From Luzula sylvatica (taxonomy: Eukaryota > Streptophyta > Magnoliopsida > Poales > Juncaceae): 64,000 nucleotides of DNA. The notes under the pieces are model-generated. The model was not told the origin of the DNA and made no database searches. It worked only from the letters and a program-made list of their open reading frames with translations. Every line of letters starts with the position of its first letter. Position 1 is the first letter of the stretch. Positions 11,454 through 59,817 of the stretch are shown here, piece after piece. The position numbers and the translations under genes were made by a program. Location of the stretch: NCBI GenBank assembly GCA_946800325.1, contig OX326961.1, positions 5,744,655 to 5,808,654 on the forward strand. The letters run 5' to 3'.

Positions 11454-11970
11454 ACCGAAGCAAGGGAAATGAGAGAACTTGAAGAGGGAGCACCGAAAAA
11501 AATATACGGGATTGATTGATACTTTCAGACAAGGGAGTGGAGCCCATAAAACCAAGAGAGAGAAAAACCTAACAAATGGGAGCGGTGGGAAAGACGAAAG
11601 AGAGCTGGTGGGTGGGAAAGACGGAAAAGATGCCCTCTTTTTATTAGATTTCGGTTAGATATTAGTATTACTTAAGATTATCGCTAATTTTTGTTTTTTT
11701 AAATTTTAAATATGGAATAATATTTATGTTGGAAAAATTGAAAAAACAACAATTAGTGGTAGTATTAATAAATAGTTAATCGAAATTTAACAAATGGGGC
11801 ATAAGTGAAATTTTATTTTGTAAGGGTATTCATGATAATTCACGTTTTAAAGAGGCATACGTGAAATTGTGGGGATTTTGTGGGGGTAAATATGAAATTT
11901 GGTCTTTTATTTAAAAGTAACAAAATATAGTTTTCTTATAAATGCATTTTTTGACGTATCATCCCGAACA
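11453..11970. other. Intergenic DNA left of the large inverted repeat
   Basis: No gene seen. Similarity to the far arm starts only at about 11971. Confidence 0.4.
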
Positions 11971-13640: not shown

Positions 13641-13825
13641 TATGTTATTTTATTGATTTACATCTGCAAAGAGAAATGGTCCCGGATTCGTTGCGAAGAT
13701 TTTGGGTTGTTACATGTGACACGTGGACCTAATTTTTGGATTTAATCTTAGTGTTAGCATGTACCTGTAAGCTCACAGTGGCCACTAAGCACTACCAGAG
13801 AGAGCAAAATAGACAATCCAAATAT

Positions 13826-17008: not shown

Positions 17009-17099
17009 CTGAAAAATTGCAAAATTACAAATAAGTCCAATATTGGCCAATTTAATTTTTCAAAAAAATTGTAATGAATTAATTACAAATAATTGATTT

Positions 17100-18754
17100 A
17101 AAATAATAAAAAAAAATGAAAGGAAGGAAGGAATATTTATTTGTAAATATTTACCGCTTTTGCCATTGGAGACGGGATTTGGAGTTTCGTCTCTCTCTTT
17201 CGTCGTTAGACTCGCTATCATCACTCTACGTACACACCGCATTTAGATCCAAAATAGGGTTTTGTTGTGGATCCTCTCAACGCTCCTTTTGAACTATTTG
17301 GTCAGTGAATTTTGCAAGTTGTGGATATGGGACCGAATTTATCTTCTTTTCTCTTAGCACCGCCCGCATCACGCAATGTCCTGGATTTGAAGAATGTGTG
17401 AGCTTTTGTTTGTCAATCGTTCAAGAAAACTGGTGTTTCAAGTGTATCGTAGTTTAATAATTGTAAGAGGAGAGAAATAAACTCAATTTGGAAGAAAATA
17501 TGTCAAAAGAACCCGAAGCAGAAGCTGCATACCTCGGATGATGAATCTTAAACATAATGCCGCCCCAGAAGGTATGGACAAAGATATCGGATCCGCAATA
17601 ATGGAGCTTTCTCTACTTGCATCGAGAAAGGAGCTGAAGTGGCTTCCTTGCCTCTCGCCACGACAGAGAAACGATAGATCCAACTGAGTACCAGACTCCG
17701 AGAAGTGGGACGTAGTCTCTGGTAGCGTTGCTTCGTTTTCGTTTTCGATTTCGATTTCGATTTCGCATTCACCTGTGGCTACATCCGACGGACAGAGGAA
17801 AGAGAAAGCAACACACGCATCTGATGGGGGCGGCGGATAGACCTAGAATGAGAAATGAGGAGGAGAGCAAAGCGGATGATTTTATGAATGAACATGGTAT
17901 GCATAGTCCATGTACGATATTTTTGTTTTATGTGTTTTTTTACGAAGACCGTGTTCACTTTAAGATATAACTTGTAATGTATCTCCAAAAGATAAATTTT
18001 CATGAACTCCTCTCAAAGTCATAAATTTACATTTTAGTCCCTGGTTTTTCTCTGATTTTAGATCGGACCTGAACCTGGTTAAAGTCGAATATGTAAAAAT
18101 GATCGCAAGATTGAATTTGACTCAATTTAAAATTTTAAAATGCAAAATCAGCATTATATAATTACCTACATACCCATGAAATTGTATAATTACAATTTTG
18201 CCCTCATCCAGATCGTTGGAACATCAACTAATATTCTCTGTATTATTAATCCCTTAAAATTTTGAGATGGGGTAATTGCTAATTAGCGGCTGAATTTAGA
18301 CATTGTTCAATATATGTTGGGGTTTTTTTGTTGTTGTTTGTGAAAAAAATTTCGTTTCGTTGTTTCCACACTTTCCAAAATATCGCAAACCATATGAGAT
18401 TGCAGTCTTCTCCGGAGTTGGTATTTAGCTTATTTTAATTTACTTGCCATGAATCATTTCCAAAATTCTTTCGTTGTTTTCACACGTTCCAAAATTCTTT
18501 TGTTGTTGTTTGTGTTGCGTATCTTAACGGTATTAGGGTTTTGCGTTCGATCTTTCTCCAAACCGCGATTGTATAAGAGCATGAGGCCAATATATGAAAG
18601 GTCATTTCCTCGTATCTTTCACAAAGCCTGCAAATAGCAAAAAATATACAGTGCCAGAAGTAAATTACATTATAGAAATGCTCCCGATTCAAATATATAC
18701 AAATATATGTAATGATTTGAAATGGGTACCACAAATTTTAATACCTAAATAATA
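17100..18754. repeat. Right arm of the 1.67-kb inverted repeat
   Basis: Inverted partner of 11971-13640. The inner edge lies near AGGAAGGAATATTTATTTG and the outer edge at CTAAATAATA. Just inside this arm the UAH central exons begin, while the UAH 5' exons begin just inside the other arm. Confidence 0.75.
18300..18636 (-). mobile_element. LINE zf-RVT fragment in right arm
   Basis: Inverted copy of 12097-12400. It reads LCERYEEMTFHILASCSYTI then AVWRKIERKTLIPLRYATQ on the minus strand. It carries an extra local duplication of the ACGTT..AAAGAATTTTGG segment compared with the left arm. Confidence 0.6.
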
Positions 18755-19859
18755 TGATGTTGGTACAATTGTACAACAAGCTTTTGCATTGTTGTTGATA
18801 CAATAGTACTCAAATTCAATTAATATTAACATTGTTTTTATTTTAGATTTTTTTTTAAAAAAAATCACTGTTCTATATATAATTTTAACATATCCCAAAA
18901 CTTTTGAACTACTCCAAAAGCCCATAACTTCGTAAATATTCAAAAGAACCCTACTTTTATTTCTATTTAAATTTTTTTCTTTATGTTGTTTTATTTAAGG
19001 CAAGATAGAGGGTTATATTTTTCTTTATGGACTATTGAAAAGGCCCATAACAGTCAAATTTATAGGATTTTATAGGATTTTTGCATGTAGACTAATTTGT
19101 ACAAATTAATATGTGAATGAATTTTAATTAGCACATTTATCCATAAATTTCCTAGTTGGAATTCGTACGACTTTATTGGATTTAATTCGCCGAACAGGTA
19201 CTTAATGTGTATTGAATGGTTTATTGCCTTATTGGATTTAGGAGGACTATTAATTGAATGGTTATTAGTTTTTCTGTATTTTTTTGTTGTTAATTTTGTA
19301 TATATATAAATGGTGTTAATTAAATCCAAAATTTCATTATCGTGAGGGTTAATTGGTGGTGGTGATAATTAACGTACATTTATGTAGTAACTAAACATAA
19401 ATAGCAATCACAATAATCTACAAAAATAACTAACAATATTTTATAATATTTTCTCATTTTTTATAATATTTATACGTATGAATTTTATAATATATAAAAT
19501 GCAATTCATATATATCATCCATTAGATCTTCATTAAAAATAACTAACAATATTTGAAATGAATTATATTACAAAATATTTTCTAATATTAGAAAATGTGT
19601 GACTTCATTAAATATCAACCATTAGATCTTGACAAAACATTATCCAATTACTGGTACAATGGGAAACGTGGCCAAAGTATTTTTGTCTTGCAATATTAGA
19701 ACACAAACATACAATTTCATTTTCCTATATCAATTTGATTTTCATGTTTAGGTAGCCATGGCTTGTTGCAACAAGCCATCCACTGGAGATCTCCCTACTA
19801 TTCCAATTGAGGAGAAAACTAAGCTAATGGAGCCGAGGGGGAGTGGTACGCAACGTTTA
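18755..19859. other. AT-rich DNA with a short ORF start
   Basis: No gene recognised. A plus-strand ATG at 19758 opens MACCNKPSTGDLPTIPIEEK, which runs into the hAT terminus at 19868. Across the inferred empty site the frame continues for about 17 codons, so this might be an exon split by the element; evidence is weak. Confidence 0.3.
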
Positions 19860-22145: not shown

Positions 22146-23120
22146 TGTTGGGTATCGGCGTCACTACCGAGCCCCGCGCAGCGGATTGTGAGGCCCGGTC
22201 CGACCCGATCCCGAGGACCACATCAACGACCCGAAAGTACGAATCATGAAATGCATCTAACCTATGAAATTAACGCTTAATTCATAGAGAATCATACCGC
22301 GTGAAATTGATCACGGAGACAGGTTGACTCTATTAGCTGCTGCTTGCTTCGCTCTTTGCTTCGATCCCGGCGACACACACGTCCCACGCCCGCGTGATTC
22401 GACACCTTGTTCGAAGCTCCTATTTGTCGTATACAACCGGAATTTATCCGATTCGTCTTCGACCTTGCTCGACTTAGCTCTCGTTAGATCACAGTCCAGA
22501 ATCTCAGTTGAGATTCCTCTACTCGTATCCACCTCGAGCTCGCGTCTTTCGGTTGCGGCGAATTCCCCTAAAATTCCCGCAAGCTTGCTTAAATCTAATC
22601 TCTATTCTCCACTAACTTGTCTCACAAGTTCTCTCTATTCTCTACTAGAATTAGGTCTGGCAGCCAGAGAGAGAGAGGAAGAAGAATCCACAGATCTTAT
22701 ATTAATCTGAGAGTTAATGGTGTATTAATGAGTATCAGAAACTGCTAATCCAGAATTCGGATCACTGTGCGTCATGACGCACGATATGGTGCGTCATGAC
22801 GCACAAGTCACATTTACTTGGATATAGCCGTTACACAGTGTACCGTCATGACGCACGATAACGTCCGTCATGACGCACCACTCATGTGTACCGTCATGAC
22901 GCAAGATAACTTGCGTCATGACGCACTACTCACAGATTGGCTTTCTCAGAATTACTCTATTGTGCGTCATGACGCACAATTTGGTGCGTCATGACGCACC
23001 ATGTAATTTCTGCCAGATTTGCATAATCTTATTATGCATCCAATCGTTCCGACGAACACGTATGTTTGTCTACACTCATTTGTACATTCAACTAGTTGAT
23101 CTGTAACTGTATTTCCTTCA
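22146..23120 (-). mobile_element. Solo Ty1/copia LTR, 975 bp
   Basis: In minus orientation it starts TGAAGGAAATACAGT, the first 14 bases being identical to the start of the full-length copia LTR at 46233. It ends CCGATACCCAACA. Near its 3' end it shares the pattern ...CCGCTGCGCGGG... with that LTR. It is flanked by a perfect 5-bp target duplication ACGAG (22141-22145 and 23121-23125). No internal region is present, so it arose by LTR-LTR recombination. The palindrome array at 22767-22999 lies in its 5' (U3) part. It belongs to the same superfamily as the full-length element but a different subfamily. Confidence 0.85.
22767..22999. repeat. Eight-copy CGTCATGACG palindrome array
   Basis: The core CGTCATGACG starts at 22770, 22792, 22844, 22866, 22892, 22914, 22965 and 22987. 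Steps are 22, 52, 22, 26, 22, 51 and 22 bp. The best copies extend to the 16-bp perfect palindrome GTGCGTCATGACGCAC. Each core carries two divergent TGACG half-sites, the core bound by plant TGA-type bZIP factors (as-1 element), so there are 16 half-sites in about 230 bp. Spacers do not repeat the palindrome. Confidence 0.9.
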
Positions 23121-29551: not shown

Positions 29552-31415
29552 CATATCACATCATGTTATAGTTGATTAATTGACTCACAATTTTAATTTG
29601 CATATTGGATGCTAATATGCACTTGTATGGATACTGGATTCTATTTGTTTTGTTTCCAATTATTTACAAGTGAAACAAGAAAAGATAGATCAAGTATTTG
29701 AAAAAACAAAAAATAAATATTCAGTACAAATATATGAGAATGACAACATGTTATTTAGGAAATAAAAAAAATCTTGGCCTCAATGACTTGACAAAACTGA
29801 AAGTAAAAAATCTTGGCCCAGTGGGCAATGATACTTGGCCCCAAACCGAAACCCCCTAAGGCCCTGTTCGAAGGCTTGGGTTTTGGTAATGGATTGACTA
29901 GGAAACTCAAGTTTCCAGGGAATGCAAAAACAGGCGTTCGGTCATCTATTTGTAAACCAACAAAAACCAAAAAAGTGTGCCAAAACAGAGGAAACGCGAC
30001 CAATCTGTCAAGTTTTGAAAAAGGAGGTCTGAGTGGGTTTTCACGTAGGAAAGGCCGGAAAGGTGAAGCAAATGCATAAAATTCTCCCCTCCCATTAATT
30101 TTTGAATACAAAGCATATGGTGAGGCCACATCACCGTTTACTGTTCACCAAACACTGTTCATACTGTTTTGATAAATATACACTAAAATTTTACAAAAAA
30201 TATCATTATTTCACAAATATTCGATTTTTTTTTTATTTAAAAAATGGATCCATGATAAAAAAAAATGGGTCTATCATAACACTCCCCTTATATTATACAT
30301 AAGTACTAGCTATGAAGATACCATGGATTGTTTTATATATACATGTATTTAGATTTGTTACTTGTAAGAGATTATCAAAAGGGACACAATGTTGTCCCAA
30401 ATTTGTTATGTATTTTAACTGCGTGAAATATGGTTTTTTATCTAATATTTCTGGCTGTCAAGGATTGTAAAAATTAGACAAAGAAAGAAATACCTCATAG
30501 AGGCGAGAACTGTGGAGAAGTAAAGAGAGCGTTGAACTAAAAATGAGAAATAAACGTTCACAGCCAGTTGCGCGAGAGAAGAAATGTTGCACTATGGTGT
30601 AATTGACCAAAAAATATTCTTATTTTGATTTGACCAAAAATAGTTGTATGAAGAAATGTTTCACGTAATTGACCAAAAAAAATCAAATGTGAGAAATTTT
30701 AATAATGATACGAAAATTATTACTATGTGTTTTTTCAAATGAATCATGAATTGAATTGAATAATGAAGATAAATCGATAACGATAACTTTTTAGAAGTCT
30801 AGAATCTACTAATTTGGTGTTTACATTTCATAAAAGTTGCCTATCTTTATAACTAGATACATATTTAAATGGGATGTCTAATAACAAAAAACAAAAATGA
30901 TCTTTAAATATCAAATTGGATGATATACTGTGTATTTAGGCGAAATAGATCTACTATAAAGTATTGTTAGTATTTTAATCACATTATTCTTTGATTATAA
31001 CTTTAATATATGTTATTTCAATTATATAAAAATAATATATTATTATTATTATTACAAATATTATAATTATATGGATATAATATAATTAGTAAAATCAACA
31101 AATGAAAATATATAATTGACTAAGTGTTGTAAGTTGTAACATGTTGATTGGCTAATAGCCTAATACAGAAGATTATCAAGTGGCAGCAATAATATATAAA
31201 TAATGACTAATGTGGTGAGTTTGTATTTTTTCAATTTTATATATCGCAATAAAAACATTATCAAAATTAGAATATTTCTAATAAAATAACAAAAATGAAA
31301 AATTAGAATATATCAAAATTTGATCTATTTTATATTCAAATTAGGTGCGTGAATAACAAACATTCTTTAAATTTGAATATTTATTGCGTTGGCCCTCCCC
31401 CTCCCCCGCTTGGCC

Positions 31416-31418
<3 letters not shown>
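29552..31418. other. Intergenic DNA
   Basis: Nothing coding was supported. GGCCCTGTTCG near 29861 resembles a Harbinger-type MITE end, without a partner. The overlapping ORFs at 29755-30134 on both strands are unsupported. Confidence 0.35.
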
Positions 31419-31449
<31 letters not shown>

Positions 31450-31580
31450 GCGCGTGGGGCCCGAACCCCCGGGCCAGGCCCCGCGTGGGCCCTCCCCCCC
31501 CCCCCCGCGGGCCAGGCCCCGCGTGGGCCCGACCCCTCCCCCCCCCCCCCGCGGGCCAGGCCCCGCGTGGGCCCGACCCC

Positions 31581-31626
<46 letters not shown>

Positions 31627-31858
31627 CAGGCCAGGCCCCGCGTGGGCCCGACCCCTCCCCCCCCGCGGGCCAGGCCCCGCGTGGGCCCTCCCCCTCCCCC
31701 CCGGGCCAGGCCCCGCGTGGGCCCGACCCCCCCCCCCCCGGGCCAGGCCCCGCGTGGGCCCGACCCCCCTCCTCCGGGCCGGGCCCCCCGTGGGCCAGAC
31801 CCCCTCCTCTGGGCCGGGCCCCACGTGGGCCCGACCCGGAACCCCCTCCTCCCGCCCT
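31419..31858. repeat. Poly-C minisatellite with GGCCAGGCCCCGCGTGGGCC core
   Basis: The core GGCCAGGCCCC or GGCCGGGCCCC begins at about 31472, 31510, 31555, 31629, 31668, 31704, 31740, 31777 and 31812: nine copies, mostly 35-45 bp apart with one 74-bp step. Cores are joined by C runs; the longest are about 29 C (31419-31447) and 44 C (31582-31625). The proline- and glycine-rich ORFs in all frames come from this repeat. Copy number and C-run length may be assembly-limited. Confidence 0.9.
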
Positions 31859-46232: not shown

Positions 46233-47332
46233 TGAAGGAAATACAGTTTTGGATCATCGCTAAAATGGTACGTAGGACAAACGAACGTACGCGTTCGTGG
46301 GCATACGAAACAGATTAGTAAAACTGGTATAACTTTCAGTAGGAAACTCCGATTGGAATAGTTCAAATTGGGTTAGTTAGATAATGAGATTATCTAGAAC
46401 TTTCATGTTGTAATATATTTCATTTGAGCGAAGTATCAGTATCGTTCTAATGAAATACCGAAAGGGTGCGACAGTTTGACATACAGTCAGTAAAACGGCC
46501 GTAACTTTCGGGTCCGAACTCCAATTGGGATGGGCCAAATTGGGTTGGAAAGATAATTAGATTATCTACAACTTTAGTAAATGTTCAAAGTCGGTTGGAA
46601 CGATTTAATATTTTCGTTCTGACAGATTACTGAAAGGGTGTATGCAGTTTTCTGTTTGAAAAGGTGTATAGAAGATATACATACCTTTTGGCCCATCCTT
46701 ATCCTATGGAGTATATATAGGATGTTTCTCTCTCTCTCTCTCTCATCAGTCCAACCAGTTGAATAATTAGATTAGTTCAACCAGAAAATTAATGGAGTTA
46801 ATTTAGAATTAATCCAGAAATTAAGAGACTCTAATCACTTGATGAAAGAGTGCGAAGAGATTGAGAGAGAAGGAGAAAAGAGTTTTCTCCGTCTAGAGAA
46901 TCGAAACGCAATCATGCAAGTTCGCCGGTGCATCGTCTAGGCAGATGCATCCGCGATCGAGGTGCTACAACTCACGGTGGATACGGGTAGAGGAGCGACA
47001 CATGTGGCTCTTCGTTGTGATCAAACCGGAGAAGTAATCGAGTAACAAGCAGTGGAATCATGCGGGCATGGAACGCACGAAGACAACCCGAGGCGTGTCG
47101 AAACGGTGGGAGACGTGCGGAATGGGACGTACGGGCTAGTCACCAACGTGACACCGAAGGAAATAGAAGGCGGCGATCAACCCTTCGTGTGCCATCAATT
47201 TGGCACTGGTATGAATCTGTCCTTCTATTCGCATCGTACCCTCGAAGTCGTGGCGTGATCTCGGGAATCGGGGAATCGAACCGGACCTACATATCCGCTG
47301 CGCGGGCCCGGGGTCGAGGATATTTCCCATCA
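46233..47332 (+). repeat. 5' LTR of the copia element
   Basis: Begins TGAAGGAAATACAG and ends TTTCCCATCA. A TATA box (GTATATATAGG) lies at about 46711-46721, followed by a CT run; this places the transcript start near 46745. The U3 part holds two 172-bp modules, starting AGTAAAAC at 46317 and 46489. It also holds a palindrome with arms ACGAACG/CGTTCGT near 46281. The 204- and 366-base ORFs near its 3' end are repeated in the 3' LTR and match nothing known. Confidence 0.9.
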
Positions 47333-47333
47333 G

Positions 47334-47345
47334 TGGTATCAGAGC
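47334..47345 (+). promoter_or_regulatory. Primer-binding site (initiator Met tRNA)
   Basis: TGGTATCAGAGC begins one base after the 5' LTR and is complementary to the 3' end of plant initiator methionine tRNA, the usual primer of Ty1/copia elements. Confidence 0.95.
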
Positions 47346-47569
47346 GATCGCCATCGATTCGAGGGTCGAATCATAGTCGTATATTAGATATACGCACGGG
47401 TTATCAAAGTTCGTACCCGTTTGCATGATGTTAAATATAGAGAAAGTCAAATTCCGTTAAAATCACAAGTGGAATTCGCTAGAGATCGATCAAAAGTTGA
47501 TTGAGAGTATCTAGGAATGATCGTGAAAAAGTTTCATGATTTATCGTTTTGGAAACGAGCGAAAACGGA

Positions 47570-48152
47570 CGAAACGGCAAAATCTGCAGAAAGTTAGAAT
47601 ACGAAACAGTGAGTAAAACTAAGATAATTTTCAGTGGAAAACTCCACATTGATTGGATCAAATTGGCGTAGTTAGATAATGAGATTATCTATGACTTTGA
47701 TACATAAAGTTTTTCCATTTGAACGAATTATCAGTGTCGTTTTTATGGAATACTGAAAGGGTGCGACTGTTTGACATACAGAGACTAAAACGTCCGTATA
47801 TGTCGCATCGAAACTCCAATTGAGTCCAATCCAATTGGGTTAATTAGATAATAAGATTATCTAGAACTTTCGTTCACGTTCAAAGTCGGTTGGAACAATT
47901 TAATATTTTTTTTTCAACAGAATACTGAAACGGTGTCTGTAGTTTTCTGGTTGAAAAGGTGTATATTGGATATACTTACTTTTTCGTTTGTTCGTATTTT
48001 ACTAAAACTGGTATAACTTTCAGTAGAAAATTCCGATTTGAATGGTTCAAATTGTTTTAGTTAGATAATTAGATTATCTAGAACTTTCATGTTGTAATAT
48101 ATTTTATTTGAGCGAAGTATTAGTGTCGTTCTAATGAAATAACGAAAGGGTG
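47570..48152 (+). repeat. LTR-derived modules in the leader
   Basis: Diverged copies of the U3 modules lie downstream of the primer-binding site, starting at 47612, 47784 (172 bp apart, as in the LTR) and 48001. Each runs through TAACTTTC-like, AGATTATCTA-AACTTT and CGTTCT..TGAAATA.CGAAAGGGTG phrases. They indicate that LTR sequence was copied into the leader before this insertion. Confidence 0.75.
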
Positions 48153-48170
48153 CAGAAAAATAGTTTTTCT

Positions 48171-48276
48171 GCCGCCCCGGGGGCAGTTTTTGGCGCCCCG
48201 GACGCGTCCCGGGCGAGGTTTTCTCGCGCCCCGTGGTCCCTGCGTTACAACGGATGGGGCAGTCCGTTATAACGGA
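48171..48276. repeat. Mixed palindrome cluster in the copia leader
   Basis: Palindrome centres of a CCCCGGGG type lie near 48178, 48199, 48210 and 48232. Two of a CCGTTATAACGG type lie near 48247 and 48269. Steps are 21, 11, 22, 15 and 22 bp. The second type is the same palindrome that fills the array at 58515-58857 in a different LTR family. Confidence 0.75.
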
Positions 48277-49770
48277 TCCTTCTCTGGATGCTGTTTTTGT
48301 TTTCGCGATAACTTTGGCTACGAAGCTCGGAATTTTGAGTTCTTTATATCGATTTGATCGGCATCAATCATTCTAGCATATTAGATATTTAATTATTTAG
48401 AATAATTAATCTCCCTAAATAAATCATATGCATTTACAAATCTTGTGATAGTGATATAATATGATTATGTCACGAATTTAGAAACATGCAATGGCATGAT
48501 CCCTCATAATATTTAAGTCATGGAAATGCCTTCCATATCCACAACCATCGAGATTGATATGACATAGTGCGTGGTTTCAGGCCATAGTCGGGCACGTACT
48601 ATTGTATATATTGGTGCGGGTGGTAAGCGTTAATTGGGGACTCACGTGGTTTCAGGCCATAGTCGGGCACGTGAGTAGTTCAATTGAACGATACGATGGA
48701 TATGGTTATGACTTAACCGTCCAAGCCAATCCGATTGGAGTTCGGGGCATAGATAGAATGCACACACGGAACATGGATTGTATTGGATACGATTCGTCAC
48801 CGAAATTCTATAAAGGAACAAGAGTCGTATTGGATACGATTGGATTTAATCCTACCTAAAATATCGAGATCTCATTTGTCGGCCATAGTCACTTATGGGA
48901 GGATCGTAAAATATGGGTCTTGAGTGTTATGGACTTGGAGTCCCGTATCGGTATGAGGGTTATCGATTCGATAAAATAACACTATCATAAATTCATCATA
49001 TAAGCATATAGATTAAGTACGCACGGTTAGGAGTTAATCTTCATCATCCGTTTAGAATTATGTTTTCAAGCAACACCAAATATATCGATGAGATCGATAT
49101 GATAGATGGTTTTTGGGCCGGAATTACCGTTATTAACCTTGATAGTCAAAGATAGTTCTTAGACTTAAAGTAACGTGTTGGACACGGAAATGGTAGATTC
49201 GGGGCTCAATGCTATGACTTTAGAGAAAGCCGGGTTCGATAAACTTTAAGAAGGAATCGAACGATATTACGTGCCTTGTGGTGGCATGTATAGACGCATA
49301 TTTCTCAAAATTGTTTTGAGAATTCGGGTGTATATGAAAGTAAAACACAACGCTCATGAAATAGTTTCAAGAGCTAGAGCGCGTTGAATGGTTCGATGCG
49401 GCTCAAAGAGTAGGTTAATTTTGAGACGCCTTATGGGTCTTTGATTAACACTCGTGTGTTGATGGTACGAGATTTTATCTTCGTGACCGAATATCATATG
49501 CATTCGATAGATAAGTCGATCCCGAAATTGCATATGATGCGATTTAAATTTGAATTGGAGATGCTCGGAGTATCCGAGGAATCCAATGCATATAGATGCG
49601 TGGATGTCCTTGTAATTCAAAGAAGGGATCGAAAGAAATGTATGTCTAAGGGTATTTTGGGAAAATGTTTTCCAAACAGAAAGTTCGGACAAGGAGTTGT
49701 CCAAACTAATGACTCAAAAATGGTGAAATCCGAGGAGGATTAAACCTAGTAGTTGATTGCTTCTTTTGGC

Positions 49771-52520
49771 ATTGCCGTCTTGGCCATATAAACAAGATTC
49801 ACGTATCTAGATTCCATATGATGGATTGCTAGAATCATTCGAATTAGATTCGATTGATTAATGCGATACTTATTTATTAGGCAAGACGACAAATGGCATC
49901 ATTCTCCAATGGTTGGAGAAAGATCCGACGAATTATTGGAACTTACATTCACATGTAGATGATCCGATAAGTTCCGAGGCAAGAGGAGGCTATCAGTATT
50001 TTGTTCTGTTTATGGACGGTTAAATTAGATATGGAAATATCTATTTAATGCGTGCCGAAACGGAGACTTTTGAAAGGTTCAAAGAGTTTCAAAAACGAAA
50101 TACAAAATCAACTAAGCAAGAAAATCAAAGCTTTTCGATAGGATCGAGAAGGCGAGTATTTGAGCTAAACCTTTCGATAGGATCGAAGAGGCGATATTTG
50201 AGTTATGAATATTGATGATCATTTATGATTGTGGAATCGTTTCACGATTGCCTTTATTCGGAACATTGAGATGTGTCCGAAAAGAGGAAATGAACGCATG
50301 TTGGACATGGTTTGATAAATGATAAGTCAATAAGATCTCCCAAAAATATTTTGGGGATACGCCCTTGAGACAGCGGCACTAATGAATGGTTGCATATAAG
50401 ATATGAACCATAAACCTTCTAATCGGTACAAAAGACGCCATATGAGATATGGATCGGAATGGTTCCGAAGTTGTCATTTGTACATATTTGAGGATGTGAG
50501 TATATTTCGAAATTTGTTTCGGTTAAACTCAATCCCAAATCTGAAAATTGTTCGTTTATCCTTAAGGAAACTACAGGGTATTAGTTCTAACGTCCCTATG
50601 AAAATTAGATTTTCGTGGCTCGAAGAGATGCCTTCTTGGAGGAGGACTAGATGCGCACAAGTTTGGAACTTGGTGTCATTTATCTCTACGCGGGCTAGTG
50701 GGAGTAGAATAAATCTCGAAAGAGTTCGTGATTTGAAAATGAACATTGTACCGATGAAAGTTGACATGGCTTCATCAAGAGTTGATGAACGCAAGTCGAA
50801 CACACAAAGGAATTTTTCGTAGATCAAGTAGGCTATATCATAAGCCGGTAAATACGGATTTATCGAGGCTAATGATGATAGATCGAAATCATATGATGAT
50901 TCGATATCCTACAAGGATGCTATGAAAAGTTGATTCCACATGACATGGTGTCATGAAATCTGAGATTCGATCCATGTTAATTATCAAGTTCAGAACTTGA
51001 TTTCATTACTTTCTGGGTTAGACCCGTGAAATGTGAGTGGGTTTTTCAAGATGACGAACCGACATGGATAGGAATACGCATATATGTAAAGCGAGGCTTT
51101 TTGTGAAGAGTTTCATGCAATTCATAGTCGGACTATGAAGAAACGTTTTCGCATGTTGCCATGCTTTCACATTCTCGAAATTCTGCTTGCCATGGTCGCA
51201 TATTACGACTATGTGATGTGGCAAAATGGATGTCAAAACCGAATTTCTTGACAGAAATTTTATGAAAGGATGTGTACTTGACACAACCTTACGGTTTTGT
51301 CGATTCATAAGAATCGGGGATAAGATATGCACGCTTTAACGATCCATATGATGGATTAGAGAAAGCTTCTCGGAATTGGAATATTCGTTTTGACAAAATT
51401 ATAAACTGTTATAAAATTGTCGAAACGAATGGAAATTTTGTGTACACATGAAGGTTAGTGGGAGCTGCGTTATATTTCTTGTAACGACAAAGGATTTAGA
51501 CGAGACCGCTTATGAATTAAGCGTGAAGATCTATAGGATAGATCTAAGAAGTTCCTCGTTCTATGTTATAGCACATATATCGACATATTGTTGAAAATGG
51601 TTTTCAACATGTAAACTCCTTGGAGGAGATAAATCGAAATGTCGAATGGCAGAAATTTTCAACGGCTCGATGTGAGACATCAAGCAGCGCGAAAAGTAAT
51701 AATATGATGCCTTACATTTGATGTTAGGATCTATTATATCTGTCATGATATGTATGTGGCTATCTGTCATACAATAGCGTCTAGTTCACCGTCAATAAAA
51801 TTCATGGGAATCACATGAGTTTGAATGTAATTCGATTACATGAGACTAACTCTTGTGATTGTATAATGGTTATACAAATATATACATAATGGTTATGTAT
51901 ATTTAAAACCCATCGGGATTTGTATTGATAGAGGTGAAGTTTATCCTTGAATACTTTGCGAAAGAATTCAGGATTTATTATCTATAATGGTGTGGAGGAC
52001 GTGTTGGTTATAAAGAGTTATAACAAACAACAGTTTCCAAAGATGAAGCACGTCCAAATATGGAGCACGACTTTCGATTACAAAGTGTGTACATGTTTTG
52101 CTTAAATGAAAACACGGTTATGTGGAAAGGTTCCACAAGACCAATAGTTTATGATTCTATTTACGGTGGTGAGTATATTGCGGTTATTAATCGCAAAAGG
52201 AAGTGGTATGGATCAAGGATACATGACCAAACTCTAGTAGTCACGAGTTATCGGATTTATGGTTGTTTATTGCGTGAGACGCAATAGTACAAGCCAAAAA
52301 TGCCGAGGTCACAACCACTTCTAGCCAATACTCAGAAAATTTCATTTGATCCATGAAATTTTATGAAATGATGTGATCGTAGGTATTGGAAATGTTCCAA
52401 TCCTGATGATGATTAACACTAGCGGGAACGTGCGGACCCGTTTACAAAACCGCTCTCTCTAGTCGCGCGTGACTGTCATGCGATGACTATGGGTATGGAG
52501 ATACCTAGAGGAGGAAGAAG
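49771..52520 (+). pseudogene. Decayed copia pol (integrase, RT, RNase H)
   Basis: Recognisable blocks across changing frames: CRLGHINKIHVSRF (gag-pre-integrase, about 49777); GYQYFVLF and RYGNIYLM (integrase core, about 49987-50060); GIVSRLP..GT (about 50240). For RT: VKCEWVF (51028), DYEETFSHVAML (51126), LTQPYGFVDS (51279) and KASRNWNIRFD (51364). For RNase H: WKGSTRPIVYDSIYGGEYIA (about 52120) and AMTMGM near 52480. Between CVY-like sequence at 51425 and KDLDETAYELSVKIYR at 51488 the roughly 30 residues containing YVDD are deleted. The open frame 52060-52287 is the RNase H remnant. Confidence 0.85.
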
Positions 52521-53695
52521 AGAGTAGAGTGTAGTTATCTAATACGATAGTCCTCGCATGTTATGGGTATGGAGATACCCATAGGTAAACGTTGTATCAC
52601 CCAAATACTTAGTCCATATGAATGCATTCCTTTTAAAAATTTTGTTTACTTAAATTAAATATGCATTCACCTTATATGAAAACAGTGTGCGGGTTGTGTA
52701 ATATGATTGTTACATGAACCTTGATTTGAACTTGTGTGGACGTCGACATGGTTGAGGACCATGTGCAGCGAAACCGTCACACTTAAAGTGTCATTTCTAA
52801 ACATCCCTAGTCGCGGATCAGCTTGCTTAAGAGAGAAGCATTTCTATTATTGGATAGACTGAACGCGTACACTAGTACGTTTGCCGAGGAGATGATTATG
52901 TTTTGCTAATCATGGGACAAGGTGCTTGTCGAATCGGGAACGTAGATATATGTTAGGTTACATGTATTGGATATGACCAAAGCCGCGAGTCCATGACATG
53001 GTTTAGTCATTATAGATGGACTTGTGACGGATGGGGTTTTAGATTCTTCATACTTGAGGGGATCATTGATTGCGTTACGTGCGTAACACAATGCTTTGAT
53101 ATGATCTTACGCTCACCGTAACAGGGAGTTAAAAGGGTCATCATTGGGTATTGTCCGAAACACGAAATTCAATGTGAGTCTCCAAGATAGGAATTGTTTA
53201 TTCCGAAAGGAAGAGATATCTCTTAGGCGCCGCTCGATGAGTCGATTAACGAAATCTCTGGCCAGAGTCAATGATATTAATGGTTAATATTGATTGAAAT
53301 TTGTTAAATCAACTCGGAATCGGGGAATAAGTATAGTTAATCAAATTATAAGGATGACTATTACCATGCCTTTTGATTAACGGATATCGCAAACAAGAGA
53401 ACTAGTAACCGCTATTCGAGATAGGCACAATGATCACAATCATTTTTCGTTTTAACATGGGTAGCCATGATGGAGTGACTAGATCCCGCTCATGGGCTTG
53501 TAGTGCCATGGAAACGGCCTACTGCCATCGTTAAACGAACCTACACGGTCACACAACGAGTCGTACTATGTCGGGCTTAATTGCAAGTTTTTGCACATTG
53601 GATGTGCATGGCTTTAGCGTATTTGATACGCGGGCCAGATTCTCTGATATAGTGTATATGTGATATACATGAGTACCTTTTAGGTAAATCTGAAA

Positions 53696-53708
53696 CTGAG
53701 TGGGAGAC
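53696..53708 (+). promoter_or_regulatory. Polypurine tract
   Basis: CTGAGTGGGAGAC abuts the 3' LTR. GTGGGAGA is the common plus-strand priming tract of plant copia elements. Confidence 0.85.
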
Positions 53709-54803
53709 TGAAGGAAATACAGTTTTGGATCATCGCTAAAATGGTACGTAGGACAAACGAACGTATGCGTTCGTGGGCATACGAAACAGATTAGTAAAAC
53801 TGGTATAACTTTCAGTAGGAAACTCCGATTGGAATGGTTCAAATTGGGTTAGTTAGATAATGAGATTATCTAGAACTTTCATGTTGTAATATATTTCATT
53901 TGAGCGACGTATCAGTATCGTTCTAATGAAATACCGAAAGGGTGCGACAGTTTGACATACAGTCAGTAAAACGGCCGTAACTTTCGGGGTCCGAACTCCA
54001 ATTGGGCTGGGCCAAATTGGGTTGGAAAGATAATTAGATTATCTACAACTTTAGTAAATGTTCAAAGTCGGTTGGAACGATTTAATATTTTCGTTCTGAC
54101 AGATTACTGAAAGGGTGTATGCAGTTTTCTGTTTGAAAAGGTGTATAGAAGATATACATACCTTTTGGCCCATCCTTATCCTATGGAGTATATATAGGAT
54201 GTTTCTCTCTCTCTCATCAGTCCAACCAGTTGAATAATTAGATTAGTTCAACCAGAAAATTAATGGAGTTAATTTAGAATTAATCCAGAAATTAAGAGAC
54301 TCTAATCACTTGATGAAAGAGTGCGAAGAGATTGAGAGAGAAGGAGAAAAGAGTTTTCTCCGTCTAGAGAATCGAAACGCAATCATGCAAGTTCGCCGGT
54401 GCATCGTCTAGGCAGATGCATCCGCGACCGAGGTGCTACAACTCACGGTGGATACGGGTAGAGGAGCGACACATGTGGCTCTTCGTTGTGATCAAACCGG
54501 AGAAGTAATCGAGTAACAAGCTGTGGAATCATGCGGGCATGGAACGCACGAAGACAACCCGAGGCGTGTCGAAACGGTGGGAGACGTGCGGTATGGGACG
54601 TACGGGCTAGTCACCAACGTGACACCGAAGGAAATAGAAGGCGGCGATCAACCCTTAGTGTGCCATCAATTTGGCACGGGTATGAATCTGTCCTTCTATT
54701 CGCATCGTACCCTCGAAGTCGTGGCGTGATCTCGGGAATCGGGGAATCGAACCGGACCTACATATCCGCTGCGCGGTCCCGGGGTCGAGGATATTTCCCA
54801 TCA
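53709..54803 (+). repeat. 3' LTR of the copia element
   Basis: It matches the 5' LTR over its full length. The CT run is 6 bp shorter and there is one extra G, which explains the 5-bp length difference. Confidence 0.9.
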
Positions 54804-55779
54804 GAAAATGCCTGTCCCACATTTTTCATTATACTCTTTTGAATTGGTACCATACGTTACCCATAAAGATTCACCAATGTCTGGAAATGACATAGATCAA
54901 CAATGAAGTTCTTGGTCTCACCCCTGCTGCTTGACTTGCTTACTGAAGTAGCTGAGTGACCACTTGAAGGGGCCTCTACGACTGGGCCTAGTGCTTGGCT
55001 GCCGCTACTGTTAGCCAAGGATTCCACCTCGGGAAGCAAAGTGCCAGCAAGGAGAGCCGGATCTGGCTTATCTGAAGTTCAAGGGCACCTAAAGGACGGT
55101 CTATCTACCCCACTCGAGTTTTGATGCAAGTAATATCGTATATAGCTCGAGAAATTGAATGAATTCTTTTGTCAGATCTTCGATAGAATGGATGGATTTC
55201 ATAATTATACGTAATTCTATGCGTCAATACTCTATTATATGCGTGACGCCTGTTTTTTGTTTTTTTCATTTTGGTGACTAACGACAAATCAATGGAATTA
55301 TGGTATGGTTCACATCATTTGGCAGTTTTTGATAGGGCAATGCCAGCAAATTGTTGGTATTTCATATGCATTATTGTTTCGATCATTTTGAGGGGCGCGC
55401 AGCGGGGAATGCGCCTAAGGGTCGAGACGAGAACGAACGGGTTTTGATACAATCAAAGACAATTGTCGAAGATCTAGGAATTGCATTGCTCCCGTTGGTC
55501 AGGCTCCCCGGGGCTTCACAATTACAGCAGTAGGAAAGCATCTCCATCAATATGGAGAATCGGTAGAGCAACGATTCTTTTCCGAAATGGAAAGGAACTT
55601 GTTCGAGTACTACTCCGAGTTTGATCATTTCTGTCCTTGAATAAGGCAAGGCTAGCGAGTCTTTGACTTCGGCCTCTCCACTCCCATGCCTTTCTTAGTT
55701 GGACCAACCCAAGCTAGATTTGTGTGTGCATTTGTCGAGCAAGAAGCGGACCAAAATCAAGCTTTCTTTATTGAGATTG

Positions 55780-56352
55780 ATGGATAACGAACTCATTTTC
55801 CAATATAGTTGGGAGATTTTACCCAAGAAATGGGTACATAAAATGAAAAGATCGGAACATGGGAATCTATTTGATACCAATACTGACTACCTATTTCCAT
55901 TGTTGTGCTTTCTCAAATGGCATACCTATACAAGAGTTCAAGTTTTGATCGATATTTGCGGAGTTGATTATCCCTCGAGAAAACGCAGATTTGAAGTTGT
56001 CTATAATTTACTGAGTACTCGGTATAACTCACGCATTCTTGTACAAACAAGTGCAGACGAAGTAACACGAATATCTTCGGTAGTCAGTCTATTTCCATCA
56101 GCCGGATGGTGGGAGCGAGAAGTATGGGATATGTTTGGTCTGTCTTTCATCAATCATCCGGATTTACGCCGTATATTAACAGATTATGGTTTCGAGGGTC
56201 ATCCATTACGAAAAGATTTTCCTCTGAGTGGATATGTGGAAATACGCTATGATGATCCAGAGAAACGTGTGGTTTATGAACCCATTGAGATGACCCAAGA
56301 ATTTTGCTATTTCGATTTTGCTAGTCCTTGGGAGCAGCGTAGCGACGGATAA
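55780..56352 (+). CDS. nad9: NADH dehydrogenase subunit 9 (mitochondrial copy)
   Basis: NAD9 is the 30-kDa-type subunit of respiratory complex I in the mitochondrial matrix arm. The frame from 55780 gives 190 residues, the usual plant length, starting MDNELIF and ending SPWEQRSDG. Conserved blocks are present: TYTRVQVLIDICGVDYPSRK, SADEVTRISSVVSLFPSAGW, EVWDMFG.SFINHPDLRRIL and YGFEGHPLRKDFPLSGYVE. An in-frame ATG 27 codons upstream (55699) is not conserved, so I chose 55780. There are no stops or frameshifts. Several residues (13, 20, 30, 40, 47, 87) differ from the protein I remember. Context is a nuclear insertion, so it probably lacks nuclear expression signals; no targeting peptide is visible. 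Confidence 0.85.
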   Translation: MDNELIFQYSWEILPKKWVHKMKRSEHGNLFDTNTDYLFPLLCFLKWHTYTRVQVLIDICGVDYPSRKRRFEVVYNLLSTRYNSRILVQTSADEVTRISSVVSLFPSAGWWEREVWDMFGLSFINHPDLRRILTDYGFEGHPLRKDFPLSGYVEIRYDDPEKRVVYEPIEMTQEFCYFDFASPWEQRSDG

Positions 56353-56983: not shown

Positions 56984-57066
56984 GGGAGAGTGGCCGAGCG
57001 GTCAAAAGCGGCAGACTGTAAATCTGTTGAAGGTTTTCTACGTAGGTTCGAATCCTGCCTCTCCCA
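56984..57066 (+). tRNA. trnY-GUA: tRNA-Tyr (GUA), mitochondrial type
   Basis: An 83-base cloverleaf. The acceptor stem GGGAGAG (56984-56990) pairs with CTCTCCC (57059-57065), with discriminator A. The anticodon GTA is at 57018-57020 in loop CTGTAAA, closed by CAGA/TCTG. It has a long variable arm and the T-loop GGTTCGAATCC. It belongs to the mitochondrial insert about 630 bp downstream of nad9. It is intact by folding; whether it is transcribed in the nucleus is unknown. Confidence 0.9.
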
Positions 57067-57150
57067 CTTGTTGACGACTTCAGAGAATAGAAATAAGGCA
57101 TTCGTAAGCGGAGGAAGGCCAACCGAGCGAAGCTCTTTCTTTTTTGGTAT

Positions 57151-57368: not shown

Positions 57369-59037
57369 TGATAAGAGGAAAATAAAGCACCTTTTTGATA
57401 TCTAATTTGGGGATTTTAGCCCTTTTGAATCACAACTTTATATATACAATTGTTCATATTTGAGATAACAAGAATATTTCTTCACTAAGTGTGTTTTATT
57501 GTTTAGTTACAGGTTTTAGAAGGAAATTCTGGGAATTTGGAAAGTGTAGTTGTCTCCAACACGTCAAGAGGAATGAAAACGATATATTATACCGATATAT
57601 TCGGTACATGAATGAGACGGGAGGCAAACAATAATCATGATAGAGACTTACACAAAAGTCCACACGAAAACCACTCAATCCTTAGCCCTTATCCTTCCCA
57701 CCTACCTTTGGTGGAAATTACTTCATTACCCCCAATCCTCTCCACCAACTCGTGACCAATAAGAAGACTCCGTGAGTGCTATTAATAAGACCAAAAGGGC
57801 CACGAGTTGGGTGTTCGTCCTTACGCTCCTTGGAGCACTTACATTCTCTCTCTCTTCTCTCTCCCTCTCAAGAACTTCCAAGAACCGTCAAGAACATCAA
57901 GAACCATTCAAGATCCTACTCGATTGTTCGGGAGATTCGACCTTGACTTGGATATCCTTCCTTTCAGCGAATCGACCCTTTCGAGACTAAACCGTGACTC
58001 GGGGATTTCCTCCTTTCGGGACTTGTGAAGTTGTGTTGAGACCGTGACTCGGAGGTTTTCTCTTTCGGAGCTTGAAGAAGGTGTCAACCATGACTCGGAG
58101 TCTTTCCTTTTGGTGACCCTTCATCGACTTAGCCCGTGACTCGAGATTTCTTCCCTTCGGTGACCAACGAAGCAAGCTTGCCGTGACTCGGAGAATTCCC
58201 CTTTCGGTGGTCAATCGAGCGACAACACTAGCGAGGAAAAGGAGGCTCTTCTTGATGCGTTTCTTTACTCAATCTAGGTGTATTCTTTTCTATCTTGAAT
58301 TTCTTGTATGTTGAATGATAGTTTAAGGTTGTCATTGAATCTCTTTCTTTGTTCTAAATCTTTGTTTCTTGCATTCGATCTTTTGCTCTCTTTTTGTCCT
58401 TTGGTTGCTCTCTTTTTAATTGCACTTTGGTCCTTAATTAAGACATTAAACAATCTCTGATCAAATCTTAATTCAAACCCCAAATAAAATACTCAAACTT
58501 AATTCCATAAACTATTCCGTTATAACGGACACAAATTGCGTTACAACGGACTAGACGGTTGGTCCTTTGATATTCAGTTGGTTATACTTCCGTTGTAATG
58601 CACATACATGTCCGTTGTAACGGACTAGTGAGGATTTTCACGCAAGAGGCTCAATACAAGTGCGTTATAACGGACATAAGGGTCCGTTGTAACGGATTAA
58701 CCAATCCGTTGCAACGCAACCACTGTTCGTTATAACGGACAAGTATAGTGCGTTATAACGGAGTTTCATCCGTTGTAACGGACGTTCATCTCACACTTAG
58801 CGACATAATTTTCACTCAAGTCCGTTGTAACGGACTCACTATTCCGTTATAACGGACTATCTTCTGTGAATTTTCTTTGCTATTTCTTGTCTAGTTTTGA
58901 TTCATTATTTGACGCATATACTCCTCGTGGAACGAACTTGCATATTTTCCACTATAACACATATAGTTCTATACTTGTTGATTGAATCAGGTTTTCGAAT
59001 ACAACGATAATTTTACACGTCAAAAACCCGCTCATCA
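57369..59037 (+). mobile_element. Solo LTR with palindrome array, 1669 bp
   Basis: It starts TGATAAGAGGAAAATAAAGC and ends AAACCCGCTCATCA. A perfect 5-bp target duplication AGTAC lies at 57364-57368 and 59038-59042. Its middle carries repeated GTGACTCGGAG/CTTTCGG phrases at about 58000-58210. GTGGAACGAAC lies about 110 bp before its end, as in the LTR at 42995. The 3' third holds the palindrome array. There is no internal region. The ends resemble the 42995 LTR, but the bodies do not align by eye. Superfamily is not assigned; Ty3/gypsy is likely. Confidence 0.85.
58515..58857. repeat. Twelve-copy CCGTTATAACGG palindrome array
   Basis: Cores of the type (C/G)CGTT-(AT/GT/AC/GC)-AACGG start at 58517, 58538, 58590, 58612, 58662, 58684, 58706, 58727, 58750, 58770, 58822 and 58844. 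Steps are 21, 52, 22, 50, 22, 22, 21, 23, 20, 52 and 22 bp. The best copies extend to GTCCGTTRTAACGGAC. Each carries inverted AACGG half-sites, the core of the plant M-phase (MSA) element bound by MYB3R factors. Confidence 0.9.
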
Positions 59038-59085: not shown

Positions 59086-59817
59086 CAATGTTGCAAAAGA
59101 CGGAAAACGGTACGGTACGGTCGGCCACCGTTTTAATGTTTTACTGTAAAACGGTCGTAAAACGGTAAAAAAACGGTTAAAAACGGTTACTTAAATCGGC
59201 AATATTTTATAACAATTATAATAGAAATTTAAAAATAAAACTAACAAAAATATAATAATTCAATTTTTATAATTCAGCTTAAACATACACGAAAGTCCAA
59301 AATTTTAAAAAAACATATGAAATATTAATAAAACATATCGAATAAATGTCCATCGACCTAAACATATCAGAATAAATATTCTTAGCTATCTAATTAGACA
59401 AAACGATCAACTAATTAGATGCGTCAATCGAAATTATACACAAAATAATTAACCATGATAAGCTGGATCAGAATTACCTTGTTCATGTAAGAATTAAATA
59501 CAAAATACCACTAATTACAATTGTTATTTGAAAGAGAACCTTTGATCTCTCTCCAAATTTACTACGAAACAGTTACCGGTTTGTAATGCCAAAAAAAAAA
59601 CACTAAAAAAAAAAAAAAAAAAAAAAAAATTAAAAAAAGAATCTGTTTTATGAAAAAAACGGTAAAAAAAAACGTTTAAAACGTTTTTTGACAAAAAAAC
59701 GGTCAAAGACGGTAAAAAAACGGTTGACCGTTTTTTGAATTTTTCTTGCAAAAAACGGGACGGTTTGGCACCGTTTTACCGTTTTTTTACCGTTTTACAC
59801 CGTTTTTTGCAACACTG
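59086..59817. mobile_element. Non-autonomous hAT element, 732 bp
   Basis: The left end is CAATGTTGCAAAAGACGGAA. The right end, read inward, is CAGTGTTGCAAAAAACGGTG. A perfect 8-bp target duplication CTTCAAGC lies at 59078-59085 and 59818-59825. The subterminal regions are crowded with AAACGGT/ACCGTTTT units in inverted orientation; the middle is AT-rich with long A runs. There is no coding capacity. Confidence 0.9.

What the first reader, a model, noticed from the sequence alone, without database searches (positions are those of the whole stretch)
58515..58857. Palindrome arrays in unrelated LTRs share one spacing rule
Twelve CCGTTATAACGG-type palindromes occupy about 340 bp of a solo LTR. 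Starts are 20-23 bp apart within groups, and groups are 50-52 bp apart. The copia solo LTR at 22767-22999 has a different palindrome, CGTCATGACG, with steps 22, 52, 22, 26, 22, 51 and 22. Unrelated sequence with the same geometry in two element families suggests selection on spacing. 21-22 bp is about two helical turns and 52 about five, so all sites would face one side of the DNA. Possible roles are homotypic binding sites for dimeric host factors, or sites for an element-encoded anti-silencing or regulatory protein. I know no named system with this layout.
Basis: partly seen in the sequence, partly recalled or inferred. Interest (0 to 1): 0.9.

Follow-up and report, generated by a model that had tools for sequence, protein, structure and literature searches.

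The report
Helix-phased palindrome arrays in plant retrotransposons
Two unrelated kinds of plant jumping gene carry arrays of nearly the same short mirror-image DNA word, spaced mostly in whole turns of the double helix, which points to a two-part DNA-binding protein that grips one face of the DNA; what that protein is remains unknown.

Summary
The reading "unrelated sequence" does not: both arrays use nearly one half-site, GTSCGTYR, with one fixed difference (CGTT in A, CGTC in B), and hybrid sites exist. A lies in a Ty3/gypsy LTR, B in a Ty1/copia LTR. The window's own 445-Mb genome holds 6,050 CCGTTATAACGG (reversed control 9) and 4,328 GCGTCATGACGC (control 1).

The spacing rule is real and wider than 22/52. 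Steps cluster near 21, 31, 41, 52, 62, 73, 84 and 95 bp, about 2 to 9 helical turns. Of 25,902 genome-wide CGTTRYAACG pairs at steps 10-40, only 19 lie at 25-28. Over all 27 non-identical step lists, phase coherence peaks at 10.5 bp (0.63; 0.30 at 11.0). A third palindrome, CGTTCGAACG, follows the series. In copies of LTR B, site cores diverge 4%, spacers 19%.

Exception: LTR arrays of B's type (7 lists) are not on one face; a central half-turn step splits them.

Best explanation: selected sites for a dimeric protein, probably a host factor the elements use. Nearest known: Sirevirus palindromic boxes; these elements fail Sirevirus tests. The protein and its effect are untested.

The parts
57369..59037 (+). 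Solo LTR A, Ty3/gypsy family, 1,669 bp, TG..CA
   Evidence: TSD AGTAC, ends TGATAA/TCATCA; sense strand and superfamily from a full-length relative with arrays in the same order and gag, RT, RNase H, integrase on + (L039)
58515..58857 (.). Array A: 12 sites CCGTTRYAACGG, half-site GTSCGTTR, steps 20-23 and 50-52
57780..57788 (+). TATA-like TATTAATAA followed by a stretch of 25 pyrimidines; putative promoter about 737 bp before the array
   Evidence: LTR position 412; promoter function is inference
22146..23120 (-). Solo LTR B, Ty1/copia family, 975 bp
   Evidence: TSD ACGAG; LTRs 93% identical in L029 and 99.7% in L030; L029 codes copia gag, integrase and RVT_2
22767..22999 (.). Array B: 8 sites GTGCGTCATGACGCAC type, steps 22, 52, 22, 26, 22, 51, 22, about 63 bp upstream of a TATA-like box on the minus strand
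46233..54803 (+). Full-length copia-type element C (LTRs 46233-47332 and 53709-54803, 99.1% identical over 1,094 aligned columns plus 7 gap columns), TSD GAAAA, Met-tRNA-type PBS, no interior frame over 144 aa
   Evidence: copia by LTR likeness to B, no Pfam retrotransposon domain above cut-off
48242..48275 (.). Third occurrence: pair GCGTTACAACGG / CCGTTATAACGG, step 22, in the leader of element C

Best explanation
Each palindrome is a binding site for a two-fold symmetric (dimeric) DNA-binding protein that reads the half-site GTSCGTYR. Sites come in pairs about two helical turns apart, and in most arrays pairs are spaced by near-whole turns (3 to 9), so neighbouring dimers line up on one face of B-form DNA and can contact each other or a common partner. 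The arrays sit in LTRs and non-coding leaders of recently active copia and gypsy elements. Because copies keep the sites better than the DNA around them, the arrays most likely help the elements, as an enhancer or by keeping the LTR from being silenced. The protein is most likely a host factor, since two superfamilies use nearly the same half-site. Shown: the half-site, genome-wide enrichment, step series, excess conservation in the B family, presence in both superfamilies. Inferred: protein binding, dimer, host origin, activating effect.
For: Genome counts: CCGTTATAACGG 6,050 vs reversed control 9; GCGTCATGACGC 4,328 vs 1; CGTTRYAACG pairs at steps 10-40 25,902 vs 5, of which 19 at steps 25-28; pairs at 41-70 22,621 vs 1, and 3,109 vs 0 for CGTCATGACG. 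Listed places: 15 clusters, 153 successive steps up to 70, 4 off the series (classes set after seeing the steps); 34 long steps from clusters not marked related: best period 10.5, none of 5,000 simulations as good with the period free. Unselected: 36 arrays, 27 non-identical lists, mean coherence 0.633 at 10.5 bp, 0.298 at 11.0, 0.255 at 10.0; none of 3,000 controls as good, whether long steps were re-drawn or jittered. Distinct long steps of 6 hand-made groups: best period 10.4, none of 2,000 simulations. Third palindrome CGTTCGAACG: p = 0.008, period free. Shared half-site: p = 0.001, or 0.018 with the CpG taken as given. Eleven LTR copies against LTR B: core divergence 0.043, spacer 0.194, rest of LTR 0.144; core below both in 10 of 11, each copy's best site dropped, 80 of 88 sites alignable. 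CpGs in cores kept 167 of 179, in R-U5 474 of 548. LTR pairs 99.8-100% identical in L019, L023, L029.
Against: No binding, expression or methylation data. The 7 lists of B LTR type with a 15, 16 or 26 step are not phased as wholes (mean R 0.306, p = 0.83). In one search two of six groups are not significant alone (A1 p = 0.084 with two distinct long steps, B LTR p = 0.15). Single CGTT lists are poorly coherent (L038 0.31; cluster 1208575 0.25). A 44-46 step recurs off the series. Within families steps are inherited, so lists are not independent, and L025 shares site-masked sequence with L012, L033 and L035. Step-level tests do not separate 10.5 from 11; array-level tests do. Arrays lie downstream of the putative promoter in A and in C's leader but upstream in B. 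Centres in A2 and A3 are asymmetric more often than expected, so the dyad is not perfect. The start of the LTR is nearly as conserved as the cores (identity 0.912 vs 0.940). The LTR copies were found through a perfect site, so some bias remains.
Confidence: 0.66

Rival explanations
1. RNA hairpins: the palindromes matter because transcripts of the arrays fold and feed small-RNA silencing, or dimerise or package the RNA, as proposed for maize Sirevirus LTR palindromes.
For: Both window arrays fold far better than dinucleotide shuffles (z -8.62 and -10.67). Small-RNA hotspots at LTR palindromes are described (PMC5311732 and PMC10760457, passages read).
Against: The folding follows from the sites alone: with spacers shuffled 27 of 40 (A) and 13 of 40 (B) controls fold at least as well, with sites re-placed 18 and 5 of 40. 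Coherence at the A-form period of 11.0 is 0.298 against 0.633 at 10.5. Self-complementarity at the centre is not kept: 6 of 12 vs 6.7 expected (A1), 14 of 47 vs 24.7 (A2), 15 of 40 vs 22.5 (A3); in the B groups it is near expectation.
Confidence: 0.12
2. An element-encoded protein binds the arrays and removes silencing, as VANC proteins do for VANDAL elements.
For: VANC target motifs lie in dense arrays in non-coding regions and spread by tandem repetition (PMC5735166, passages read). Some plant gypsy (Retand) elements carry extra, possibly DNA-binding, reading frames (PMC11963269, abstract and passages).
Against: In the 9.5-kb locus L029 the only frames of 130 aa or more are one of 1,342 aa (gag-pol) and one of 135 aa at 243-650, outside the element but for its last bases. 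Two superfamilies share nearly the same half-site.
Confidence: 0.15
3. Tandem duplication alone: ancestral units were multiplied and the step classes are inherited unit lengths, with no selection on phase.
For: Duplication is visible: in B a 48-bp unit at 91% and four 47-bp modules at 72-100%. Within families step lists recur. One of three pairs of A's long spacers is similar (p = 0.008). L025 and the L012, L033, L035 arrays share a short site-masked stretch.
Against: Groups with no site-masked similarity (array A; the C-leader group; B LTR; B leader) share the step series, and long steps take many values (30, 41, 52, 62, 73, 84, 95) about a turn apart. Steps 25-28 are nearly empty genome-wide (19 of 25,902). 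Cores are conserved above their spacers.
Confidence: 0.15
4. The arrays are host silencing or nucleosome-phasing sites used against the elements.
For: Rotational setting on nucleosomes also has a period near 10 bp (established knowledge). The arrays are CpG-rich (O/E 1.69 and 1.43 vs 0.98 in the window), though other parts of both LTRs reach 1.1-1.5.
Against: A young, successful family keeps the sites better than their surroundings, the opposite of what escape from a repressor predicts. Best period 10.5 rather than 10.2 (0.633 vs 0.421).
Confidence: 0.1

Closest known systems
Sirevirus repeated motif (RM) boxes (Bousios et al. 2010, PMC2829016; abstract, section 9 and passages read)
   Same: Clustered palindromes of 10-20 bp, nearly all with CpG in each arm, 8-32 per element, in LTRs and in a second non-coding region; CpG-island-like; near a TATA box.
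   Different: Sirevirus boxes have a CGG-CCG core (one exception) and were reported as absent from other copia elements; no spacing rule turned up in what I read or in the terms. Here the core is CGTY..RACG, in copia elements that fail Sirevirus tests and in gypsy elements, with steps near whole helical turns.
VANC target motif arrays of VANDAL elements (PMC5735166, passages read)
   Same: Short motif in dense arrays in non-coding regions of a mobile element, with turnover between related families.
   Different: VANDAL elements are not LTR retrotransposons; the motif YAGTATTAY is not palindromic and lies in one orientation; bound by an element-encoded protein.
MYB3R / MSA element (core AACGG; PMC8964727, passages read)
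   Same: Array A's arms are YAACGG, containing the AACGG core.
   Different: Array B's arms (GACGC, GACGG) lack AACGG, so MYB3R cannot explain both.

Membership tests
Sirevirus (and its RM boxes) | PPT octamer AGGGGGAG, many copies upstream of the 3' LTR | tested here: not met
   Elements C and L029 have AGTGGGAG before the 3' LTR and no AGGGGGAG on the plus strand inside; not applicable to gypsy family A
Sirevirus (and its RM boxes) | 5' LTR/PBS junction CA/ATTGG (or AGTGG)/TATCAGAGC | tested here: not met
   C and L029 have CA/GTGG/TATCAGAGC, one base shorter
Sirevirus (and its RM boxes) | CGG-CCG signature in the palindrome | tested here: not met
   Arms are CGTT or CGTC followed inward by R
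Sirevirus (and its RM boxes) | At least 8 palindromic copies of the motif | tested here: met
   12 in LTR A, 8 in LTR B
Sirevirus (and its RM boxes) | Cluster shortly upstream of a TATA box | tested here: inconclusive
   B: about 63 bp upstream; A: about 737 bp downstream of the putative TATA
VANC-type anti-silencing target | Element encodes the binding protein | tested here: inconclusive
MYB3R (MSA) target | AACGG core in the sites | tested here: not met
   Present in A arms, absent from B arms
Helically phased homotypic site array (works like) | Sites of an array on one face, distances near whole B-DNA turns | tested here: inconclusive
   Met as a class: 27 lists, R 0.633, and 20 lists without a 15/16/26 step, R 0.747; not met in 7 lists of B LTR type, R 0.306, p = 0.83

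The most novel reading that the evidence does not exclude
Competing retrotransposon superfamilies of one plant use a common, helically phased cis-code: interchangeable half-sites (CGTT, CGTC, perhaps CGTTC), paired at two turns and repeated at whole turns, read by one family of dimeric host factors that builds a stereospecific complex on LTRs and leaders and decides which elements stay active.
Probability: 0.35. Interest if true: 0.9.

Novelty: new variant of a known kind. Interest (0 to 1): 0.8.

Why it matters
Palindromic boxes in plant LTRs have been described since 2010; I found no spacing grammar and no binding protein for them in what I could read. A near-whole-turn spacing rule that recurs in copia and gypsy elements, tens of thousands of site pairs in one genome, turns the open question 'what are these palindromes for?' into a direct test: does adding 5 bp break function while adding 10 bp spares it, and which protein binds GTSCGTYR? 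If a host factor is found, it would be a shared handle by which unrelated elements recruit the host, and a large natural data set on how phasing of binding sites matters in plants.

Tried and rejected
Viral contigs: scans for both paired motifs gave three contigs each, with two or three sites, not examined further. Literature: exact motif letters (16 and 17 papers) gave nothing relevant as far as titles and abstract starts show; LTR-palindrome searches led to the Sirevirus papers; the 2016 Genome Research paper on maize Sirevirus palindromes is not held and is known to me only through other papers. The first ten letters of LTR A's minus end (40 papers, 20 listed) and the paper on LTR attachment sites (passages) did not help. 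Pfam on 10 window frames and 10 frames of element C found no retrotransposon domain above cut-off. Rejected: array A read on the minus strand, to which I leaned from a remembered LTR start; gag-pol direction in L039 settled it. Rejected: MYB3R as binder of both arrays. A common ancestor of arrays A and B was sought by site-masked alignment and not found (p = 1.0 and 0.31; of 12 spacer comparisons one reached p = 0.037, uncorrected).

Hand choices. One search used 13 lists that I picked, without B LTR lists (mean R 0.75). One search used a hand list for CGTTCGAACG (p = 0.0075, or 0.029 with two more steps). I therefore repeated these without selection and rest on that. My confidence fell from 0.68 to 0.66 because B-type LTR arrays came out unphased (p = 0.83).

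Not completed: genome counts for steps 35-38, 10-18 and for CCGTTCGAACGG, and any census over all families.

Full report
WHAT IS THERE. Array A (58517-58855) has 12 sites CCGTTRYAACGG with steps 21, 52, 22, 50, 22, 22, 21, 23, 20, 52, 22. Array B (22769-22997) has 8 sites with core CGTCATGACG and steps 22, 52, 22, 26, 22, 51, 22. In the whole window the core CGTYRYRACG occurs 21 times; 0.33 are expected. Two of the 21 form a third locus at 48242 and 48264, step 22, inside the leader of a full-length element that I call C.

THE TWO PALINDROMES ARE NEARLY ONE MOTIF. Read from the outside to the centre, the 24 half-sites of A are mostly GT[C/G]CGTT[A/G] and the 16 of B mostly GT[G/C]CGTCA. Position 2 from the centre is the only fixed difference. 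The likeness has p = 0.001 against permuted columns, or 0.018 if the CpG is taken as given. Among 241 perfect cores in the window and loci L007-L032, 6 are hybrids with one CGTT and one CGTC half.

WHICH ELEMENTS. LTR B is 93% identical to the LTRs of L029, whose pieces match copia gag, integrase and RVT_2, and 99.7% identical to a copy in L030. LTR A's family has a full-length copy on contig 1, with LTR arrays at 89379 and 98291 in the same order as in the window and a further array at 95642. Its interior (L039) reads gag, protease, RT, RNase H, integrase on the plus strand, the gypsy order. L012, another CGTT array, lies in a locus with gypsy-type RT, RNase H and integrase. Element C has LTRs 99.1% identical over aligned columns (a blastn comparison gave 98.5%), a Met-tRNA-type primer site and LTR blocks similar to B. 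Arrays L037 and L038 adjoin sequence 95% identical to C's leader, so CGTT arrays occur in copia leaders too. In B and C three LTR blocks align, while the stretch between LTR start and TATA box gives no significant match. B-family loci L023, L027, L029 and L032 carry a second array of 20 sites near the LTR, in the leader.

GENOME-WIDE. The window lies in a 445.3-Mb assembly. CCGTTATAACGG: 6,050 places, reversed control 9. GCGTCATGACGC: 4,328, control 1. Pairs of CGTTRYAACG at steps 10-40: 25,902, control 5; at steps 41-70: 22,621, control 1 (includes non-neighbouring sites). Pairs of CGTCATGACG at 41-70: 3,109, control 0. The tool calls such counts lower bounds.

THE SPACING RULE. A script found 36 arrays of four or more sites in the window and loci, with 27 non-identical step lists and 252 steps: 15-16 (7), 19-23 (149), 26 (2), 28-32 (11), 37 (2), 40-41 (4), 44-45 (5), 50-53 (39), 61-65 (26), 72-75 (4), 95 (3). 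Mean phase coherence over all 27 lists is 0.633 at 10.5 bp, 0.583 at 10.4, 0.553 at 10.6, 0.421 at 10.2 and 0.298 at 11.0; none of 3,000 controls reached it, whether long steps were re-drawn or jittered by up to 5 bp. In the places listed (about the first hundred of each, all near one end of contig 1), 175 perfect sites form 15 clusters with 153 successive steps up to 70; 4 of 153 (two at 45, two at 69) fall outside the classes, which I set after seeing the steps. The 34 long steps from clusters not marked related give a best period of 10.5, reached by none of 5,000 simulations with the period free. Genome-wide, 19 of 25,902 pairs lie at steps 25-28; this count needs no choice of mine but the range. 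Six hand-made groups give a best period of 10.4 for their distinct long steps (none of 2,000 simulations); singly p is 0.084 (A1), 0.004 (A2), 0.0002 (A3), 0.15 (B LTR), 0.03 (B leader), 0.01 (B other). A third palindrome, CGTTCGAACG with up to one mismatch, has steps 19-23, 45-46, 52, 62-64, 84-85, 95-96, 99, 108 and 117; without selection its 17 long steps give p = 0.008 with the period free, best near 10.7. Step-level tests do not separate 10.5 from 11; array-level ones do.

EXCEPTIONS. B's LTR array is phased in each half (R 0.945), but the halves are offset by about 4.5 bp. The seven lists with a 15, 16 or 26 step, all B LTR type, are not phased as wholes (R 0.306, p = 0.83), against 0.747 for the other 20. 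The central step is 16 in some copies and 26 in others: about one turn apart, so the half-turn offset is kept. Steps of 44-46 recur; they may be two steps around a decayed site, not shown. Some CGTT lists are poorly coherent (L038 0.31; 1208575 0.25).

DESCENT. With sites masked, 15 array regions fall into groups: array A alone; L012, L033, L035; L034, L036, L037, L038 and C's pair; L031's two arrays; B LTR alone; B leader alone; the L030 fragment alone. But L025 (79% over 47-48 bp) and one L031 array (over 90% in 24-26 bp), both CGTC type, match the L012 group. So not all groups are independent, and some exchange between CGTT and CGTC arrays is likely.

CONSERVATION. Eleven copies of LTR B were compared with the window copy. 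Cores differ by 4.3% on average, spacers by 19.4%, the rest of the LTR by 14.4%; cores are lowest in 10 of 11 copies after dropping each copy's best site, and 80 of 88 sites could be aligned. Among 12 copies pairwise, identity is 0.940 in cores, 0.785 in spacers, 0.846 in R-U5, 0.756 beside the TATA box and 0.912 at the LTR start. CpGs inside cores are kept in 167 of 179 cases, in R-U5 474 of 548. The copies came from a search with a perfect site, so some bias remains. LTR pairs of L019, L023 and L029 are 99.8-100% identical, so the families were recently active.

MECHANISM. Near-whole turns of B-DNA, a two-half site, half-sites that vary independently, and excess conservation point to a dimeric protein on DNA. 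Selection among copying elements favours what helps copying, so an enhancer or anti-silencing role is likelier than a host repressor; this step is inference. Nearly one half-site in gypsy and copia elements favours a host protein; this too is inference. RNA folding is strong but follows from the sites alone, does not fit the period, and self-complementarity at the centre is not maintained in CGTT arrays.

KNOWN OR NEW. Sirevirus LTRs carry palindromic boxes with a CGG-CCG core, 8-32 copies per element, forming CpG islands (PMC2829016: abstract, section 9 and passages read). The copia elements here fail the Sirevirus PPT and primer-junction tests, and family A is gypsy. I found no report of a spacing rule for such boxes in searches, nor of these motifs in 26 and 27; most subscription papers are not in that library, and the 2016 Sirevirus paper was not available. 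I class this as a new variant of a known kind.

Noticed in passing
48242-48275, element C leader: Third pair of A-type palindromes with the 22-bp step, after internal copies of the element's own U3 (47599-48153).
   Followed up: yes
46379, 46551, 47674, 47846, 48063, 53855, 54028: Element C's LTRs and leader carry another dyad, AGATAATNAGATTATCT, in 7 copies, 172-173 bp apart within each LTR.
   Followed up: partly
L013, L018, L019, L020, L021, L022, L025: A third palindrome CGTTCGAACG (up to one mismatch) forms arrays with similar step classes; genome count not obtained.
   Followed up: partly
55699-56352 and 56984-57067: Reading frame of the NADH dehydrogenase 30-kDa family (PF00329, E 2e-42; nad9-like by recall) and a tRNA-Tyr between retrotransposons, probably mitochondrial DNA in the nucleus.
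   Followed up: no
11969-13647 and 17099-18756: Large inverted duplication at 89-95% identity.
   Followed up: no
59148-59807: Segment with inverted ends rich in ACGGT directly beside LTR A.
   Followed up: no
L012, L033, L035-L038 arrays: In CGTT arrays of other families the centre is self-complementary less often than expected (14 of 47 vs 24.7; 15 of 40 vs 22.5).
   Followed up: partly
L025 1400-2000 with L012, L033, L035: A CGTC-type array shares a short site-masked stretch with CGTT-type arrays (79% over 47-48 bp), a possible trace of exchange between families.
   Followed up: no
31386-31857: C-rich tandem repeats, with a 49-bp stretch of nearly only C.
   Followed up: no
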